Assembly: GCF_022458985.1 (NCBI RefSeq)
Contig: NC_061782.1
Coordinates: forward strand, 20,845,672 to 20,909,671
DNA: 64,000 bases
Source: Mugil cephalus
Lineage: Eukaryota; Chordata; Actinopteri; Mugiliformes; Mugilidae
Direction: 5' to 3'
Under the pieces are notes generated by a model that saw nothing but the letters and a program-made list of their open reading frames with translations, ran no database searches and was not told where the DNA came from. This document shows, piece by piece, positions 24,701-36,273 of the stretch. The stretch's first letter is position 1. Each line of letters begins with the position of its first letter. The position numbers and the translations under genes were made by a program.

Positions 24701-25226
24701 ACTACACAGGGAAAATTTCTGTTAGTACCAAAGGCCAGTCCGAACTGTAAGGGACAAAAGGACTAGGACTAAAGAGCTTTTCTGGACAGCTTAAACCATG
24801 TATCGGAAGTAAACAGCCCCTCTTCTGCATTTCAGGCTCATAAGTCAACCATCTGGCAGGTGAGACATCTGCCTCAAAACAGAGACATCTTTATGACTGC
24901 AGGCGGAGCCGGCAACTTACATCTATGGAAATAGTAAGTTACAGATATTTCAGTTCACATCGTGGTGGTTCTTTTATAACAATCTAATATACAAAATGTG
25001 TTTTTATGTGATTTGCAGCGAGTATCCTGGTGAGAGAAGTAAGAAAGACTCGGATGACGTGGATGTGGGCGTAGCCGGCTCTGTCAACCTCTTACAGAAT
25101 GTCACTCTGTCAACTCAACCAATCGCCAGCCTGGACTGGAGCCCTGACAAGCAGGGCCTGTGTGTGTGTTCGGGTTTCGACCAGTCTGTCCGTGTGCTCA
25201 TCGTCACCAAACTCAATGTGGCTTGA
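21785..25226 (+). CDS. wdr92: WD repeat protein 92 / dynein axonemal assembly factor 10
   Basis: WDR92 (Monad, DNAAF10) is a cytosolic WD40 beta-propeller that works with prefoldin-like and RUVBL1/2 co-chaperones in preassembly of axonemal dynein arms. Exons: 21785-21970, 22455-22555, 22772-22902, 23010-23111, 23542-23657, 24118-24252, 24836-24933, 25019-25226. They total 1,077 bp, giving 358 residues (human 357). All junction phases agree. Diagnostic segments are [20 protein letters not shown] near the N-terminus, [48 protein letters not shown] and [20 protein letters not shown]. The ending is [10 protein letters not shown]. The exon 1 donor is GTGGAT, weaker than the others, but it gives the expected [13 protein letters not shown] junction. 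It is divergent from pno1 and convergent with the unnamed TPR gene. Confidence 0.97.
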
Positions 25227-25483
25227 AAAAGGAGCCCACAACAATGACTCATGATGAAATTTCAGGTGGGATTAAGTATAATTGTGGCGATTCACCAGCA
25301 AAGGTGTAAATCACTGTATTTTTATGACACTTAATTGTCTTCTGTTAGAAGACACCTATTTCATACAGCTTGTCTCTGCAGCTGCCTATATTTTGTACAG
25401 TTCATACTCATGTTGCCAGACATTTAACTCGATTGAACTCTTGTTCAGGTTTGATCATTTTGTCTCTGTTTAATGACAGTCCT

Positions 25484-25489
25484 AATAAA
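25484..25489 (+). terminator. wdr92: Polyadenylation signal of wdr92
   Basis: AATAAA lies about 260 bp after the wdr92 stop and is followed by T/GT-rich sequence. It is the first consensus hexamer downstream of the gene. Confidence 0.6.
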
Positions 25490-25720
25490 ATATGTGGTGC
25501 CTGGTTGAGCCCTGCAGGTAGTGTTATGCTGTGTTGCAGAGAAGTGCATGGAGTAAAACTGTGTCCTGTGTTGGAATGAAGAAATGAGTCATACAGCCTC
25601 TGGCTTGGAGTAATTCGGATCACTTTCCATTTCTGTTGGAGGCTCGCTGGGACACCTGTGTTTTGTTAGTGAACACATCTACTCCAGTTTTGTTAAAATT
25701 GTCTCTTTTGATGTGACATT

Positions 25721-25726
25721 TTTATT
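25721..25726 (-). terminator. Polyadenylation signal of the cadherin-like/TPR gene
   Basis: TTTATT on the + strand reads AATAAA on the - strand, about 150 bp beyond the stop of the 20-exon gene. With the wdr92 signal 230 bp away, the two genes are closely convergent. Confidence 0.5.
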
Positions 25727-25878
25727 GAGAACTCTGTTTTCAAATTAAACATTCACCTTTGCAGAATATGACATCAGGAATAGTAAAGTCAAAAGAAATA
25801 AGTTTTTATGAACACACTGACTACCAGCTCAAGACAAAACACTGACTCCTAAAAAGAAATCGGGCATTGTTACAAACG

Positions 25879-28800
25879 TCATATCCAGCATTTGAACCTG
25901 AAGAAGTCCTGGAGCTCCGGATCGTCCTCCTGTCTCTCATGGATCCTCGCGTACACACTCTTAAGCAGTGTGGTCATGGACTTTCCATCCAATATGTCAA
26001 TGTATTTCTCTATGCAACCTGCAAACACAGCCACAGATGAGTTCATCAGCTTTACTGCAGCCGCACTGAAACAAACCCTGACATACGCTATCAAGTAGTT
26101 GGAAGTGGTTTTAATTTTCAGCGTCTTCAATTAATGAACTTATTCTAACTGGACTTATCTTGTGGCTTGTTGGCTATTTGACCAATGCTGCATATGTGTA
26201 CTACTATGTCACATGTCATCCCATCTGGCCATTACACCAGGAGAGTGTTTAACATCTCTATAAATAACATGACATGGCATGTCACATGGGTCTGACTGCG
26301 TGATTTTAATATAACACAATTGTTAAATATAGTTCAGATGACTACTACTATAACCCACTCATGGGGTAATGTTATTCAACATGGGTGGAATTTTATTTTT
26401 TCAGTTCATATTTATCTTAATGTGAACTACTACAGTATTTTACTAAATTTTAGCCATGGTAATCCTGACTGATTAAGATGTTAGAAATTATGAGTTTTCC
26501 AATATACTGCACAGTCTTGGTAACAATAGTAAGAGTATTCACTTAGGCCCATGACTTTGCCGTATGCTACGAGGTTGGGCCCCAGCTGCGGGTGGTCATA
26601 CTGCTCCTGTGACATCAGCATGCGAACGATCTCTCCTGTGATGAATGCGTCGTCAAAACTTTGCTCTGCCACAGGCTTCAGGGGGAATCTGCAGTACACG
26701 TCCACTGCAGCCTGAGGATCGGATGGTTCCAGCAGCTGCACTAGCTCAGTGTAGGCATCATGAATCTAAAAAGTCCATTAATTCATTCATTACACCTGAT
26801 ATTTTTTGTAAACCAATTTAAATACTATTCGCTGATTCAAATCGTGAATGTTGAATGTTGAATGTCTGCTGCTGTTGACAACCAGAATTTCCCCTCTGTG
26901 GGATGAATAATATCTTATCTCTTATCTCATCTTAACTTGGAGACATTCTTTTGGCAATGTCACATAATTCAAGTGTAGCCAACTATTGAGAAACTAAACA
27001 CATCAGTTTTCATTCTTGTAAACATTTTTCTAAAACTGAAAGTAAAAGGTTACCTTCACTGAAATGAATCACCGAGAATCCAGTAACACAATTGGGTGGG
27101 TGTGAAAACTGTTTTTCAGTCATTGCAAAACCTGTGAGGAAACACCAGAAATGTAAACGCTGCAGATGAGAACTGACCCCTGGTGACACGGCGATGACCT
27201 CTTGGTAGAGCTGCTTCGCCTGGTCCTGGGTGTCTGTGCAGCGTGAGAGAGCTCGGGCCAAGCCCAGTCGTGATACATGAGATTTGCGGTTCAGTGGACC
27301 GGATTCACTGGCACCGTCCACCGCTGCAGGCTCTGAAACAACAGCTAATACATAAAGAGGGATTACACAGAGGAAGAAAAGGGTGCTGCTGTTCCACGCT
27401 TTGTCATAGATGAGGATTCACAATCACAAAATTTAAGAGCCGGGACATTTTTCTTTCTCTGTTGAACATTTCTATAATCTTACAAAAAGTAAAAAAAAGT
27501 GCATGAAACAGTGTAAGGTGTGACAGTAGATTACCTGCAAATGAAGACATCAACAGAGTAAAACCTACATGTTCTTATCTTTCACCTAAGACTCCTGAGA
27601 AGAAATGGTTTCACTAGACTATCTGTGCCACTCTCTGTCATGCCTCACCCTCAGCTGCCTCAGCAGTATCAGGGCAGCAGTCTTGTTTGGACTTGTCGGA
27701 GGGGTGTTGGGGTTTAGTACTGTTGCTGGAAGGTTTAGCAGATCTGTCTGGCTTGGCAACTGCTCCAGCTCTCCCCCTACAGGCGAACAAATATATTACA
27801 AATACTGGATGGATTACAAAATTTGAAGAGGACAACCCTGCTAACGTTGCTCTCAGTGAGTTTATCTTGACCATGTGTATTGATGACAAGCAACAGCGAG
27901 AAGACTGTTCTATCGTGCTTCGTGAGTAAGAATTGCAGAACTATAAAACAGATTTATCCAAAGGAAATTATCCGCGGATCAATAAATAAACAAAGACATC
28001 CACAGACAACCGCATAACATGTCTTTCAGACACTATGAATCAGCAGACTGTCAGCATGACTCACCTGGCTGCAGGGGTTTTGGCTGGAGTCCGGGCAGCT
28101 TTGCCTCCCCTGTTGGGGGCTGGAGCTAGAGCTGGAGCTTTAGTTACAGCTACTGCCGTCCGTCCCTGACTAAGCCCTCCCCTGCCCTGCCTAGCTCCTC
28201 TTTTTGCCACACTGGTATCAGAAGGCCCCTTCACTCCAGCCGGCTGGGCGATGGACTGCCTGTCAGCTTTCTCGTTTTTCGCCTGCAGCCAGTCCTGCCA
28301 CCACTTTTGTTCTGAGCAAAGAAAGGTAGTTAACGTGGGAACGCTGGGAGTTTTACTGAAATGTGTGACTAGCCACACCTCTGTATATTTTTTTGCTAGT
28401 AGCTGTATGAACACTCACTGCTCAGCTGTTTAGGTGGCTCTCCGCTCCGACTCTTGTTTTCCAGCTCAATGCTGGCCTGGAAGCTGAGGCAGGCATTGCT
28501 TAAGGCTTCCTTTGACCTGTCTGAGTTGGGGTTGCTGTCATACTGAGCCAGCTGGGCCAGGCCCAAGCGGCACAGGGCGTGGCTGTCCCGTGGTGTGGTC
28601 GCTACAGCTATATGGCATGTCTATATGCAGCAGTGGTGAGGCAGAAGGTACAAGAGTGCTCTGTCATGCCAGGCACTTCTGTTCATTACCAGTCAGTACA
28701 CAGTACAAACTAGCTACACTGTGATGTGTATATACACTGTGATATTGTAAAACACAAGCACAAACCAAAGCAAAGACTCTTACTCTTTCCTGCATGCCCA

Positions 28801-31800
28801 GCAACTCCTGACAGGGGGCGATGGAGGTGAGCCGTAAGAGAGCTGTGAGGGCCTGGCACCTCTTCGCTACCAGGTACTGCCGCTCTGTGCCCGTCTTAGC
28901 CTGGTGTTCACCCTGCTGGATCAGCCTCTGCAGCAGGGCAAAGTGAGCATCCAGCAGCACCCACTCCAGCTGCCTGATCGCCTCCCCACGACACACACAC
29001 TGACTCACTCTCTGGGCAGTCAGCACCGCTACTCTGAGGCGATCCAGTGTAGACACAAGAAGACAGAGTTTCATGCAGCGCTTGAACACTTTCTGTCTTA
29101 AATGCACATTCATTAGACATATTATTGGAGATGAGATCCACCACAAATACTGAGGAGAGGACGTAAATTCAATACGAAACATCACATTTGTACTTAAACA
29201 AACATCTGGTTTGTAACACACATGTGATAGACTTGTTCAGCGCTCATGGCCTTTACAGACAGTGTGTCTCTCTGCTGCAGCTGACCCAGAGTGAGAAGGC
29301 CTCGCAGGAACTGTGTATTGAAGCTGGACAGAGGGTCTGATGGACCCTGCTCCACCCAGCTGCAGACAAAATGAAAAAGAAAGAAAGCATAGAAAAAACA
29401 GCCACGATGACAATGATGAACCTACTTATTGTTGAATCTCCAAATCTTAGGCAGATTCCCAAAGTTTCACCCAAAGTTTTTCACTGCTAAATCTGACTTT
29501 CTCCCTACTTTAGATTTTTAGGTTACAAAAAAAAAAATATGGTGGTTTGTGAAAAGCTGCATTAAAACTTTGAAACATCTTTTAAAGTGCAAATGTAGAT
29601 AGAATATCAACAGAGGAAACAGTCTTTTCACCGTCCTATTCTCCCTCCTGAAGCGTTAAACGGAATGACTGGTATATTACTGTTGCTGTCATGCCCTCAT
29701 ACTCTCTCCCTCTCTAGCTGAATGCATCCACCTCCACTACACACACGCACACACACACACACACACATAAACACACACGCACACACACACACACACCTCT
29801 TGCTGCAGCACTGGCTGACAAAGTGTTCGAGCCCTTGTTGTAAAAAGAGAGCGGCCTCCTTCTCCGTGTCCTCTGAGGCTTTCTGCTCCTGCTGCAGAAG
29901 AGCCAGTCCAGTGAAGAATCTGGGAGAATGAAGACACAAGACAACACCAACTCTGATTCAGGTTTCACATGTTAATCTTGCCTCATCTCACAAGTCTGCG
30001 TAAAACTATTCATTTTTTCCAAGTTCCCAATCCCTTTTTGATATTATTGTGTAGGGCTCAGAGGGCAGTGAGAATTTGAAGAGCAGGTTAAGGGTTTGTT
30101 CAAAGCTGCTCTCTGTAGTTGGAATAGAAAATGTTGTGCCTGATTTAACCACTCTGTGCTCTATTATGGCTTTAGCTGAGCTCCAAAAATGATGACGTTG
30201 CTTTGAAGTTTGTAAAAGGAGATGAAATTCATGATCTTATACTGCTGTTTTATATTGTCACTAGCTGCCTGCACTTTGTGATAATCTCTACTACAACCCA
30301 CACAGTTGTGTGGATAATTAATTCTGATCATTGTTGTTAGACCTACTATCAGACCCACTGCTACAATATGGTTTCTGTTTCTTGAACCGTAAATACTTCC
30401 TGGAGCTGACCTGAGTGCGGGATGTAGGGGACGTAGTGCCAGGCCGCTCTGAAGGTGCTGCAGAGCTTCCCTGCTCCTCCCCTGTAGCAGCAGCAGCCTA
30501 CCTACATGGAGGCTGTGCTCCCAGCTGTCTGGACTCAGAGACCAGGCGTCCAGGTACTTCATGAGCGCTCGGTGGACACTGCTCTCCTCGTCTCTCAAGG
30601 CTGCGTTGCTATCCTGCAACAGCACGCACTCTATCATAAGACTTTAAACTCAGAGAGTAGTTGGCAAAAAGATGGCAATGGCTGCATATTGCATCAGATC
30701 AGTCTAGGGTCAGAACAGCAGTTCTTCAGTGGTCTAATTCTCTCATCAGCATCACCATTATTTTTGTTTATTGACCGTTTCTTTAAAGTTAGACGAGATA
30801 TTTCACTTTCCAGAGTAGAAAAACTGAGTTAAACTGGATCATCAGCAGCAGAAGCAACATGCTGATGTTGTTACCTTGCCAGTTTTCTTTGAGAGCCAGA
30901 TGTAAAGTGTCTGAACATAGTCGGCCTTGTTGGACTGTCCTTGATCTTTAAGCAGATGATACTCTTTGTCCAGGGCCTGCAGCTGGTTCTCCACTGTGGG
31001 CGTACCAAGGAAACCGTGTAGTTTACACACAGCCAGGATGTCGTCCTGATGTGACGCTGACTTCGCATCGCTTAATTCGTCTTTGTTCTTGTCAGCCTGG
31101 ACACGCAGGAATAAAAACAGGAGAGGTGTTGTTTGCTTTCAGCTGCACCAATTTACTACCAGAATTCAAAAATGCGGTAAATGTAAATGTTCAGATTGAA
31201 GAAATTATTCACATTATTCACACTACATACCAAAGCAACTCTACTGTAATAATGTATAGTAGGTCTGTAGAATCCTATGTACTCCCTGATAGTTTTGAAT
31301 TAGTAATGAAATATCACCCCATTTCAGCTGTGTTTAGGTTGGTGGGAAAGTTCTTGGATCCTTTAAGGTTGCATTTAGGAGACATTTTTACTGAGAACAT
31401 GAGCACACAGTCTTTGTATTTTTTGCAAAAAGGTTAAAAAGTTATCATCCGTGTCATACTAGAGCCAGTCATACATACATTACCTCAAAGAAAAAACTTG
31501 TCTCTAATGACAGTACCTTCCTCTGAAGGCCGAACATCTCCGTAGCGTAGTGCTGCTCCTCCAGGACCAGACCCAGCTGGAGGTGAAGCCTGGAATCTCT
31601 GGAACTGAGTCTGATGGCGGATGCGTAGAGGACCGCAGCCTGCTCCAGGCTATGCAGAGGAGACTGGTCATCCTCATACTCCAACTGGTCTCCTATGGTA
31701 ATGTGAAACATACACACTGCGGTTTATTGATGTTTTACACTAGACTATTTGCATATATTGGTGGGAGAATTTGCATCAGTATAGAGCTGCAGTACATCAA

Positions 31801-34800
31801 CCTATTTGTCTGCTTGCTACAACAGGAAGCAGTGGGTTTAATTTTAGATTTGTTGACTTATCATACCCGTTATTTACTTCACTAAACTTTGCAATCTGCC
31901 GTCAGCACAGTTGGTAGGTTTGGTTTCAAAAACTACAAGCTGTAAAACCCAGAAATCTCAGCACATGGCAACAAACGTTTGAATTTATCCTATGAACCGC
32001 TAGAATCTTATTATTGTACTCGAATGAAATGGAAAATATGATTTGGCTGCAAGAGGCCTCAAAGCATTTAAAAATGTTATAAACACAAAGAGGTGACAGT
32101 TTTTGTTTCCCTTCATAAGGAGAAATAAAAGTATTTAGCTGCCCTCTCTTTCACTTATCAATAAGTGGATGCATCTTTTTCATGAAATATTCAGAGAGAG
32201 TAACTTTGCTTAGTACGAGTGTCCCTTATCTGTCAAACTGCGTTCATGCCATGGCTTTTAATTTGTAATGTAGCAGGCAAGTATTACAAAACATACCCAC
32301 CAAAGATACATATAGTATCTTATAGAGTAGATAGTAGCTAATGCATTTGCTTTTCGCCAAACATTCCCGTGCACATGTTTCAGCATTTTACACTGAGGAC
32401 ATGTTCAAGTGATACAACTTGATCTCACTGTTTTGCCAGTAATACAGCATCAGGGCACTTTTATTCATCAACCTCTGTGCAGATTGATCTTGTGCAAGAG
32501 AAAATAGCTTGTTCATATTTTAAGAAGTCTCACTCTGATGTTACTCCTCGGTTTGGTTCCGGTGACTATTACTCAATCATCTGGGATCATTCTCAAATGT
32601 CGCCTCTCTTTGAGCCCTCAAACAATTAGCGGGGCCAAAGTGTCTGGGAAAAGCAGTAACTTGAGTGCTTGGCATGTCAGATAAAAGTTTAAGAGGCAAC
32701 CAGTAACTAGCCCATTTTCATGTATTTTTTAATAGATGAAAGCTAAGGCAGGGCAAGGAAAATGACACACACTGTGTGTTATTTAACTTGCCGTCGAATG
32801 TAAAGGAAGGTCCAGAAGCTCTCTATTAAAACTCTCTATAGACACGAATAGGAATTCATATTAGTCAGCATTTTATAAATGTATTGTATATATTATATTG
32901 TTTTTTTTTGTTATTTATTTTATTGTGGATGATGATTTACTATATATAAAAATGAATGAGTGAGAATGTTATTGTTAGGGACATGTATTGACAGAGGGGC
33001 ATGTATTTAGACTTTGTGAAGATTGACTTCATTTCTAATCTCACGCTCTTGGTGTTGTGCTACATGCCTGGTTTTGGCAGGTGTTGTCTGTAGAGTTTCA
33101 GGTGGTCTTGGGCCAAAGCACAAAGCTTATCCACATTGTCTTCTCCCGCTATCATTTGCATTCGTTCCTCCCACTTACGCATCTGAAACAGGCAAAGTCA
33201 ACACGGCAAGCAACAAGACACAAACTGCCTCAGATTATACAGAGAAATGTGACTCTATGAAAATTCTAACTATCCTACTGTGAATACAGCTATCAAGGAA
33301 TGGGTGGAAGTAAATCTCAATAAACCTAGTTTGCCTCCATATCATGTGTCAGTATATGAAGTAATGAACAGTACAGTGAGTATATTTCAGTTCTAAATGT
33401 CTTTACTAAATGGGATTAACCATTCAGAGAAAATTAACCGACTGTAGTCTTAAAATACAAAGTAAAAGTACAGATAACTACCTCACATGTGTGTTTGGTC
33501 TCCATCTCCAAACACGTGGATGATTCAAAATTCTTCTTATACCAGTCTGTCTCTGTTACATCCTGAAAGGTACACTGGTTAGACTAAAATAGTTTTTAAG
33601 ATTAATGTGGACACAAGGATGAAGAAGTGGAATCCATTTACAGTACCATAGTCACTCATTATGATATTAAATATTTCATCTTATAAAACAAAACAAAAAA
33701 TACAAAGCAAATTTTTAGTCAAGGTATAGTGACAAGCCATTAAATGAAAGAGCAGTAACGGACCTCTACGCAACAGCGTTACAAACAGAAGCTATTTTTA
33801 CTATGGAAGTTAAACCAGCGCTTAGTCACAGTGAAGGCAGCAATGACTTGTAAATAAAGGATGAGGTGAGCCAAGGTCGATAGCAGTGATTCTGGCAGTG
33901 CAGGGTGTTGCTTAATCTTTCATACTGACCTTTGCATCCAGGTCCCCCGTGGGCTTGTGTGGACAGTCCAAAGAGTGTGACCCCAGCTCAGACAGCTTCA
34001 TCACGCTGTCACATCCTTTGTTAAAAAAACATCAAAGGCACAATAAATCACACATTAGAGGTCGATACTACTTTAATCGTGTTCAATACTACTTTAATCT
34101 TGTCCTTCACTCCTGAACAGCAGCGCGCGGAAGGCTATCAACCACTTAAACTACACATTTTAAGTTTATTAAAGCTCGTGCCAATGTGAGCTGGAGTGAC
34201 ACGTTTATTTAACAGCTCTGTGGTGAAACTGTCCAAACTAATAACTTCATTATCTGAGAGACATTTGTGCTGTTTAAAAATACAAATCAAATAAGAAAAA
34301 CCTGCTGGATAAAATGGCCTGATAAAAAGAAAAATCCTTCATGGCAGATACATGAGGTTTTAGTTAAGTAATAATATCCACCTCATTACAGCAACATAAT
34401 CTTTGTCTACAGCACCATCATGTTACATGATAGTATAGGCAGTGCACCCAGGACTGTTGAGAGGTAAGGCAGAGTGCACCTAGATGATTAACCATGCAGT
34501 TATACAAGCGTTTCCTTAGGATATTCTAAAGATGGAAACAGTTCAGTAAAGAGTCCACGTAATAACAGTAATTCTTTTTTCACTGTCTTGGTTTGCGGTT
34601 TACTCAGAGATAAAAGTGGATCGACTACTCTACCCACTGATTTCAACTCTAACAACATCTCTGCTTCAGACGAATCTCTTTGAGGAGCCAAGTCTCAGAC
34701 CTTCACCTCGGTAAGAAAAGAAACACTTGACTAGAGCGGCCGACATCCTCCCGTCAAGGTCCAGTTCGACCACCTTCCAGCCGTCTCCCAGGGGGCAATC

Positions 34801-36273
34801 AGTGAGAGGGTCCACTTTTGACCTTCGTGCGAGCATCTCAATATAGGGCCTTGAAAAGATGCTCTTTGGATCACTGCAAATCAGCAAGAGAACTGGAGTG
34901 ATTTACATCACATTTTCCAACCATAACACAGAAGGTAGAGAGTGTGGATGTTCTGTGGTACGGAGGTGCCACTCAACATGGTAATTTTACATACTTAAAT
35001 GTAAATGTGAATGAGAGATGAAAATAGTTATCTTTAACATCTTTAACAAGCACAAATCAACACAGCTAAATTTGGCGATGAGAAATGGAAACAACCATTT
35101 TAAAAGTTGTATGCTTTCTTTTCCCATTTAAAGCTCACCTGTGGTTGATGGACACGGGCCTGTAAAAAGCACTCAGGGAGACTGGACATTCACTTTCCAG
35201 CTGCTGCTTCCCATCAGTGAAGGTCACAGGCATGGGAATCACCTCTCGAGTCACAAACACCGTGTACACCTGGCAGAGTTAAAGGGTCAGGTACACTAGT
35301 GTAGCGCCACGGGATATCAGGTGGACAGACATCTGATATACAAGGCTATGCATATATGTATATGTTCTGGTACATAATTAATATATCCCACCTTGATAAT
35401 CAAGCACACACAAAGCCTTTAATCACATCAGTGCTGCTGATATTGCGCAGTCATCGATTCACGTCTCGTCATACCTGTGAAATACTGCCATCTGCTGAAC
35501 GGACTGACGCCTCTACAGTAGTGTCTCCAACGTTCAGAGGGACGGGCTGTGAGCTGCTCGCGCCGTTCACTGAAACTTTTATGTTCCTATCTGGCACCTT
35601 GAGAAGCAGAGTCACTGCATCACAATAAAAGGGAACGGTGCCTGGGAGAAAAAAGAAAGTTTGCTGTTAGGAAAACAGAATCTAAACATTTTTTTCGGTG
35701 TATTTCAAAACTTAATATCACCACGTGCACATTTTTAACAAGTATGTTGTTTGTTGCGTTTATAAATAGTAGATTAGTTATAAATTCACAACAGCAGACT
35801 TCTCATACAAAATGTGCAGTTTTTACTCACTGTTGTATTCATAGACTTTGTTGCAAAATGCAGGGTACAGTGGAATATCTCCTTCTAAAGCCAGATCACT
35901 GAGCTCTGCGATCTTTGCTGACAGTTTACTGATTTCCACGCTGTAATTCTTTGTGGTGCCATCCTCAGCCACGACTTCGATTTCCACTCTGTTCAACCCA
36001 TCTTTCAGTTTAATGGAGCTGGAACCGTCACCAAAGAGCTGAAATGCATCACACACAGTCACATGTATTTGATATGAAAGAGACAGCTGTGCGGCTGTGC
36101 AGGACTGTACTCACAATTCTGTATGAAGCGCCAGAGTCACTGGTAACCATGTCCAGAGTCACTTTGTTGACACTGCTCTCCACCGACACTTTGTAGTCTG
36201 TGACTTCTGGTGTGAACGCCGGATGGAGCTTCCCGCCAGAAACAGAGAGCTTCTCCAAATCACAGTTGTCCAT
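25879..36273 (-). CDS. Unnamed 1,122-residue protein: two cadherin-like beta-sandwich domains plus TPR repeats
   Basis: I do not recognise a named family member. Exons 5' to 3': 36273-36115, 36038-35831, 35641-35475, 35269-35139, 34873-34707, 34015-33930, 33562-33482, 33182-33068, 31692-31517, 31096-30875, 30613-30411, 29919-29797, 29359-29233, 29092-28784, 28620-28419, 28311-28065, 27776-27649, 27332-27178, 26765-26543, 26018-25879. The sum is 3,369 bp with all phases matching. Residues ~6-95 and ~105-188 have the bacterial-type cadherin-like sandwich pattern (VTDYKVSVESSVNKVTL; VEVVAEDGT-type strands ending NYSVEISK and VYTVFVTRE). Residues ~222-277 contain DPLTDCPLGDGWKVVELDLD, faintly U-box-like. 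TPR-like helices follow, e.g. HLQLGLVLEEQ, EALQHLQSGLALRPLHPAL, DSHALCRLGLAQLAQY and QAKQLYQEVIAVSPG. A basic Ala/Pro/Lys linker occupies ~860-950. No signal peptide or membrane span is seen. A scaffold role is inference from the repeats only. Confidence 0.85.
26848..26932 (+). repeat. 3' tail of a fish retroelement (LINE/SINE remnant)
   Basis: The stretch reading AATTTCCCCTCTGTGGGAT followed by GAATAA and a degenerate TATCT repeat matches the 3' tail common to many fish LINE/SINE insertions. It lies in the intron between exons 18 and 19 of the TPR gene. The body of the element is not visible, so this looks like a 5'-truncated copy. The family name cannot be given without a repeat library. 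Confidence 0.45.
29738..29797 (+). repeat. (CA)n microsatellite abutting a splice donor
   Basis: An interrupted CA/GT tract lies immediately downstream (on the - strand) of exon 12 of the unnamed TPR gene. The donor of that exon reads AAGAG then GTGTGTGTG, so its GT is the first repeat unit. Confidence 0.85.

What the first reader, a model, noticed from the sequence alone, without database searches (positions are those of the whole stretch)
25879..36273. Twenty-exon cadherin-like/TPR gene between wdr92 and c1d with no name I can assign
A complete model (20 exons, 3,369 coding bp, all phases matching) encodes two tandem cadherin-like beta-sandwich domains, usual in bacterial surface proteins and rare in vertebrates, followed by a TPR-rich body and a basic Ala/Pro linker. 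In human 2p14, C1D and WDR92 are neighbours with no such gene between them as far as I know. It may thus be an old gene lost in mammals or one gained or retained in fish. It adjoins the dynein-assembly factor dnaaf10, which makes a ciliary role worth testing, but adjacency alone is not evidence.
Basis: partly seen in the sequence, partly recalled or inferred. Interest (0 to 1): 0.72.

Follow-up and report, generated by a model that had tools for sequence, protein, structure and literature searches.

The report
Unnamed fish cadherin-like/TPR scaffold gene
A real, apparently single-copy fish gene of about 20 exons joins two bacterial-style beta-sandwich domains to a helical-repeat body; it looks like an uncharacterised intracellular scaffold whose function is not yet known.

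Summary
On the minus strand, 36273-25879, I rebuilt a 20-exon, 3,384-base, 1,127-residue gene. Eighteen of 19 introns are GT-AG, one GC-AG; all phases match. In 19 of 20 exons the model frame has the best codon score of six frames. Pfam finds two tandem Cadherin-like (PF12733) domains (E=4e-29) and weak TPR repeats. I add a possible degenerate TRAF-type zinc finger (E=0.026, below cut-off), no signal peptide or membrane helix evident by eye and hydropathy, and a single copy in the 635-Mb genome at the sensitivity used. Neighbours wdr92, pno1 and ppp3r1 are confirmed, c1d supported. The tandem domains are about a third identical to bacterial ones; a 2010 paper proposed that eukaryotes got this domain from bacteria (PMC2824669, passages). 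No relative of the whole protein turned up, but no eukaryotic collection was open to me, so orthology and 'lost in mammals' are untested. Intron 8 (one gene or two) and the exon 13/14 border are uncertain. Best reading: an intracellular scaffold; a ciliary role is a testable guess.

The parts
36115..36273 (-). exon 1; start codon at 36273; first half of Cadherin-like domain 1; the protein begins directly with the domain
35831..36038 (-). exon 2; rest of Cadherin-like domain 1 and start of domain 2
35475..35641 (-). exon 3; Cadherin-like domain 2
35139..35269 (-). exon 4; end of Cadherin-like domain 2 and linker
34707..34873 (-). exon 5; first part of possible degenerate TRAF-type zinc finger
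   Evidence: sub-threshold
33930..34015 (-). exon 6; second part of possible zinc finger (C272-C279-H291-C295)
   Evidence: sub-threshold
33482..33562 (-). exon 7
   Evidence: weakest codon score, 0.6
33068..33182 (-). exon 8; ends at a GC donor; if unspliced, reads to TAG two codons on
31693..33067 (-). intron 8, 1375 bp, the only GC-AG intron and the longest; the junction that decides one gene or two
31517..31692 (-). exon 9; TPR-like
30875..31096 (-). exon 10
30411..30613 (-). exon 11; TPR-like (residues about 524-585 with exon 12)
29797..29919 (-). exon 12; its donor is the first unit of a (GT)n microsatellite
29222..29359 (-). exon 13; 3' border uncertain
28784..29096 (-). exon 14; 5' border uncertain; helical in a low-confidence single-sequence model
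28419..28620 (-). exon 15; TPR-like by eye only, no Pfam match
28065..28311 (-). exon 16; start of basic Ala/Pro linker
27649..27776 (-). exon 17; basic linker
   Evidence: model frame not best
27178..27332 (-). exon 18; weak, sub-threshold TPR_14 and TPPII_C matches continuing into exon 19
26543..26765 (-). exon 19; C-terminal region without a named family
25879..26018 (-). exon 20; C-terminus and stop codon
25721..25726 (-). AATAAA, candidate poly(A) signal 153 bases past the stop

Best explanation
A genuine protein-coding gene for an intracellular scaffold or adaptor. Shown here: an open, phase-consistent 20-exon model with coding-type codon use; two tandem Cadherin-like beta-sandwich domains at the very N-terminus; a few weak TPR-type repeats; a basic Ala/Pro linker; no second copy detected in the genome. 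Inferred: the protein is cytosolic or nuclear, a TPR-like helical solenoid holds partner peptides or helices, the beta-sandwich pair is a further binding surface at one end, a TRAF-type finger between them may help assembly, and the basic linker tethers the C-terminal module.
For: Model, phases, splice sites and codon scores. PF12733 twice, E=4e-29; TPR_11 E=2e-6 in residues 373-612. Domains 1 and 2 align at score 72 vs mean 26 (SD 4.5) for 500 shuffles. In the alignment with bacterial domains the first domain begins at about residue 3-4, leaving no room for a signal peptide in this model; the most hydrophobic 19-residue stretch averages 1.38, low for a membrane helix (scale recalled). No dedicated signal-peptide or membrane predictor was run. 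Weak zf-TRAF match E=0.026 and a C-x6-C-x11-H-x3-C pattern. Matches of the protein in the own genome: 2 of 2 and 18 of 18 lie in this locus.
Against: No homolog of the body was found, so no conservation or selection test. TPR support is thin: residues 613-857 matched no Pfam family up to E=10, and my own TPR-signature count was only weakly above shuffles (3 vs mean 0.95; 68 of 1,000 shuffles reach it). The zf-TRAF match is below cut-off and absent in scans of the full protein and of a 186-residue fragment. The two AlphaFold jobs were single exons with mean pLDDT 49.6 and 57.8, too poor to support a fold. Secretion through an unannotated upstream exon is not excluded. Intron 8 may separate two genes.
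Confidence: 0.6

Rival explanations
1. A ciliary or sperm-flagellar assembly or structural factor, perhaps working with its neighbour wdr92/dnaaf10 in building axonemal dyneins. This is a special case of the scaffold reading.
For: Neighbour wdr92 confirmed. In eukaryotes the Cad-L domain was reported in 2010 only from metazoa and chlorophyte algae, groups with cilia. TPR scaffolds are common in cilia (general knowledge).
Against: Adjacency is weak; the reported eukaryotic spread includes the secreted C7orf58 family. No axonemal chain is among the PDB matches, although the PDB holds axonemal complexes (recalled). No paper held the three terms.
Confidence: 0.25
2. Two adjacent genes: one of 8 exons (about 373 residues, two Cadherin-like domains plus possible finger) and one of 12 exons (TPR body). 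The GC-AG junction is false.
For: Exon 8 read on meets TAG two codons later, with an AATAAA at 32924 about 140 bases on; intron 8 is the longest and the only non-GT one. An in-frame ATG lies just upstream of exon 9.
Against: The GC donor is among the best 0.2% of GC sites and the phase fits; no CpG-rich promoter-like stretch in intron 8, CpG o/e 0.24-0.52. GC3 differs only modestly, 0.56 vs 0.63.
Confidence: 0.15
3. A TRAF-finger/TPR ubiquitin or immune-signalling adaptor.
For: Weak zf-TRAF match, E=0.026, and C2HC pattern.
Against: 15.7 bits against a cut-off of 27; no RING, MATH or other ubiquitin domain among the Pfam matches.
Confidence: 0.1
4. A secreted carbohydrate-binding protein, the function suggested for Cad-L domains in PMC2824669.
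For: Domain family, and the carbohydrate-binding suggestion in PMC2824669.
Against: No signal peptide evident in this model; TPR-like body and basic linker are more usual in intracellular proteins (general knowledge).
Confidence: 0.05

Closest known systems
C7orf58 (CPED1 is the current name, and recall): ATP-grasp, Cad-L, PC-esterase (PMC2824669, passages read)
   Same: contains a Cadherin-like (Cad-L, PF12733) domain
   Different: secreted protein with ATP-grasp and PC-esterase domains; neither appears among the Pfam matches here
Bacterial tandem Cadherin-like proteins and autotransporters (e.g. hits in Ensifer, Paenibacillus, Agrobacterium plasmids)
   Same: two consecutive PF12733 domains, 30-36% identical to seven of the bacterial pairs
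   Different: of two whole bacterial genes scanned, one carries 10 Cad-L stretches (L018), the other an autotransporter barrel (L017); neither shows TPR or a TRAF finger at E<=0.01
LOC580673 of sea urchin, a metazoan Cad-L protein named in PMC2824669
   Same: Cad-L domain in an animal protein other than C7orf58
   Different: architecture not given in the text I saw and sequence not available here; could be an ortholog, untested
TPR solenoid proteins (designed TPRs, OGT)
   Same: weak local TPR similarity (E=0.0019; E=0.082)
   Different: few scoring repeats; no OGT catalytic domain among the Pfam matches

Membership tests
Cadherin-like beta sandwich domain (PF12733) | profile match above curated cut-off (24.2 bits) | tested here: met
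   101.3 bits over two stretches; exons 3-4 part of domain 2 alone 40.9 bits
TPR repeat protein | several TPR units above cut-off | tested here: inconclusive
   TPR_11 27.8 vs cut-off 26.8 in residues 373-612; all TPR families below cut-off on the full protein; signature count weak
TRAF-type zinc finger (PF02176) | match above cut-off 27 bits | tested here: not met
   15.7 bits, E=0.026; C2HC pattern present
C7orf58/CPED1 family | PC-esterase and ATP-grasp domains | tested here: not met
   neither in Pfam scans
classical cadherin | extracellular cadherin repeats (PF00028) with signal peptide and membrane helix | tested here: not met
   no such Pfam match at E<=1; no clear hydrophobic stretch
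ciliary/axonemal protein | ciliary location or ciliary defect on loss | not testable with these tools
   needs expression or knockout

The most novel reading that the evidence does not exclude
An ancient animal gene in which a bacteria-derived tandem Cad-L module was recruited into a cytosolic TPR scaffold, kept in the MEIS1-linked wdr92-c1d block of fish and lost in mammals, and used in cilium or sperm assembly.
Probability: 0.15. Interest if true: 0.65.

Novelty: new variant of a known kind. Interest (0 to 1): 0.42.

Why it matters
If the architecture and the absence from mammals are borne out, it is a lineage-restricted scaffold gene sitting in a well-conserved syntenic block, and an example of a bacterial surface domain turned to intracellular use. 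It gives a simple testable candidate for fish cilium or sperm biology. If it is only one more unnamed fish ortholog of an invertebrate gene, its value is annotation.

Tried and rejected
Phage megablast of the locus: no match. Rfam (gathering thresholds) and tRNA: nothing in the window. Viral and prokaryote contig scans with pieces of the protein or, all of it, and one C-terminal DNA pattern: no relative; these depend on exact matches to a few 8-residue patterns, and the collections hold no eukaryotes by design. NCBIfam: only TPR-type matches far under cut-off. PHROGs, residues 373-612 only: nothing. Other sub-threshold Pfam matches that I set aside: Glucodextran_B E=0.0004 on domain 1, TPPII_C E=0.0011 near residues 984-1025, REST_helical E=0.0082. 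Solved structures: designed TPRs and helical repeats, OGT, and chance matches (Sos1 E=0.1, interleukin-13 E=0.33) for the body; an alpha-galactosidase C-terminal domain (8yk1, E=2e-7) for the Cad-L profile, a domain-level match only. Literature searches without a useful description: no paper; one paper each; three papers, none opened; 17 listed, one of them, PMC3436827, opened for a passage. One search (16 papers, 10 listed) gave PMC2824669, of which I read passages. PC-esterase search in the own genome found nothing although fish should have such genes (recalled), and the tool warned that nothing rang anywhere: so, in which PF12733 rings only at this locus, does not prove that no other gene has the domain. 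An alternative exon 14 start (29033) gave no Pfam match either. Bacterial origin of this gene's domains: compatible but not tested by a tree, because no other eukaryotic sequence was available.

Full report
What is there. Introns run from 76 to 1,375 bp; 18 of 19 are GT-AG and intron 8 is GC-AG. Codon log-odds (human codon table recalled from memory, background from 38.6-64 kb of the window) sum to +309 bits in the model frame; the other five frames sum to between -107.5 and -14.6. Random sets of equal-length segments, each in its best of three frames, gave -216 with SD 40 and a best of -88 in 2,000 trials. The model frame is best of six in 19 of 20 exons; exon 17 is the miss. This is far beyond chance, and there is no in-frame stop before the end, so no sign of a decayed pseudogene.

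What it encodes. Pfam gives the Cadherin-like domain PF12733 at E=4e-29 in two stretches, the best over residues 7-90; residues 123-189 alone score E=2.9e-10. The first match crosses the exon 1-2 join and the second fragment the 3-4 join; bacterial tblastn matches to residues 3-188 run across joins 1-2-3-4, which supports those junctions. The two domains align with each other at score 72 against a mean of 26 (SD 4.5) for 500 shuffles. Their introns fall at different places (after residue 53; and at about 122 and 178), so the pair is not a recent exon duplication (inference). TPR families match residues about 387-418 and 524-585, best E=2e-6 in a segment scan, with a sub-threshold match near 978-1018; residues 613-857 matched nothing. 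My own TPR signature scan was only mildly above shuffles: 3 windows against a mean of 0.95, reached by 68 of 1,000. 'TPR-rich' is therefore plausible for exons 9-12 and only inferred for the rest. Between the two parts, residues 237-301 hold a C-x6-C-x11-H-x3-C pattern and a sub-threshold zf-TRAF match, E=0.026 and 15.7 bits against a cut-off of 27; the full protein and a 186-residue fragment gave no such match, so this is a lead only. The basic Ala/Pro linker is real: 36 A+P and 18 K+R of 111 residues. There is no obvious membrane stretch, and the first domain begins at about residue 3-4, leaving no signal peptide in this model; no dedicated predictor was run. Single-exon AlphaFold models of exons 14 and 5 had mean pLDDT 49.6 and 57.8 and carry no weight.

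Doubtful joints. If intron 8 is not spliced, exon 8 runs to TAG two codons on, with an AATAAA about 140 bases later, and exon 9 has an in-frame ATG just upstream. So two genes, or a short isoform, are possible. Against this, the GC donor scores 5.7, a value reached by 0.2% of GC sites, the phase fits, and intron 8 has no CpG-rich promoter-like stretch. At exon 13/14 the acceptor I used is poor (-5.0); a good acceptor at 29149 needs a poor donor to keep frame. These do not alter the domain picture.

Where it sits. The window lies in a 635-Mb assembly of 24 contigs, which with the gene content suggests a ray-finned fish (inference). Neighbours were tested: wdr92 (3i2n, E=6e-45), pno1 (E=1.5e-49), calcineurin B/ppp3r1. 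c1d found no PDB match and a Sas10/Utp3/C1D Pfam match of 26.8 bits, E=8e-6, just under the cut-off of 30, from an incomplete set of exons. Two searches that together cover the whole protein in the own genome returned 2 of 2 and 18 of 18 matches inside this locus: single copy at that sensitivity. PF12733 rings only here, 3 of 3 matches, but a failed control with PC-esterase shows that intron-split domains are easily missed.

Relatives. In the plasmid collection 50 of 72,556 records match the Cad-L pair at E<=0.01, 13 of them with one place covering at least 80% of it, the best 34.5% identical, E=4e-18. I aligned seven of the 50 (30-36% identity); of two whole bacterial genes scanned, one carries 10 Cad-L stretches (L018) and the other an autotransporter barrel (L017). 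[quoted passage not shown] it names C7orf58 and a sea urchin protein, LOC580673. No relative of the full protein was found in the collections open to me, none of which is meant to hold eukaryotes, and no convincing relative of the body among solved structures. My ten literature searches listed no paper recognisable as describing a Cad-L/TPR protein; most listed papers were not opened. Whether such proteins lie in sequence databases without a paper could not be tested.

Mechanism. Shown: the gene and its domain content. Inferred: an intracellular scaffold in which a helical repeat body and a beta-sandwich pair bring partners together. Ciliary work with wdr92/dnaaf10 is possible but rests on adjacency and on a loose taxonomic spread. 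Verdict: a sound observation, a new architecture of known domains as far as I could search, moderate interest, and quickly decidable with eukaryotic sequence searches and RNA-seq.

Noticed in passing
29739-29796: The donor of exon 12 is the first unit of a (GT)n microsatellite of about 29 repeats (87% matches); length variation here could affect splicing.
   Followed up: no
38600-64000: Past c1d I recognised no gene by eye in the ORF list, and no tRNA or Rfam family was found; this fits the gene-poor, regulatory side of the MEIS1 cluster listed in PMC3436827, but conserved elements were not tested.
   Followed up: partly
25226-25879: wdr92 (stop about 25226, placed by eye) and this gene converge tail to tail with about 650 bases between stops; AATAAA signals at 25484 (+) and 25726 (-) suggest short 3' UTRs that need not overlap.
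   Followed up: partly
L018:460-5454: A Roseateles plasmid protein of 1,665 residues carries 10 Cadherin-like stretches plus two Ig-like (He_PIG) stretches.
   Followed up: partly
28908-29168: A second frame stays open alongside the chosen one through the 5' part of exon 14, making the exon border hard to place by sequence alone.
   Followed up: partly
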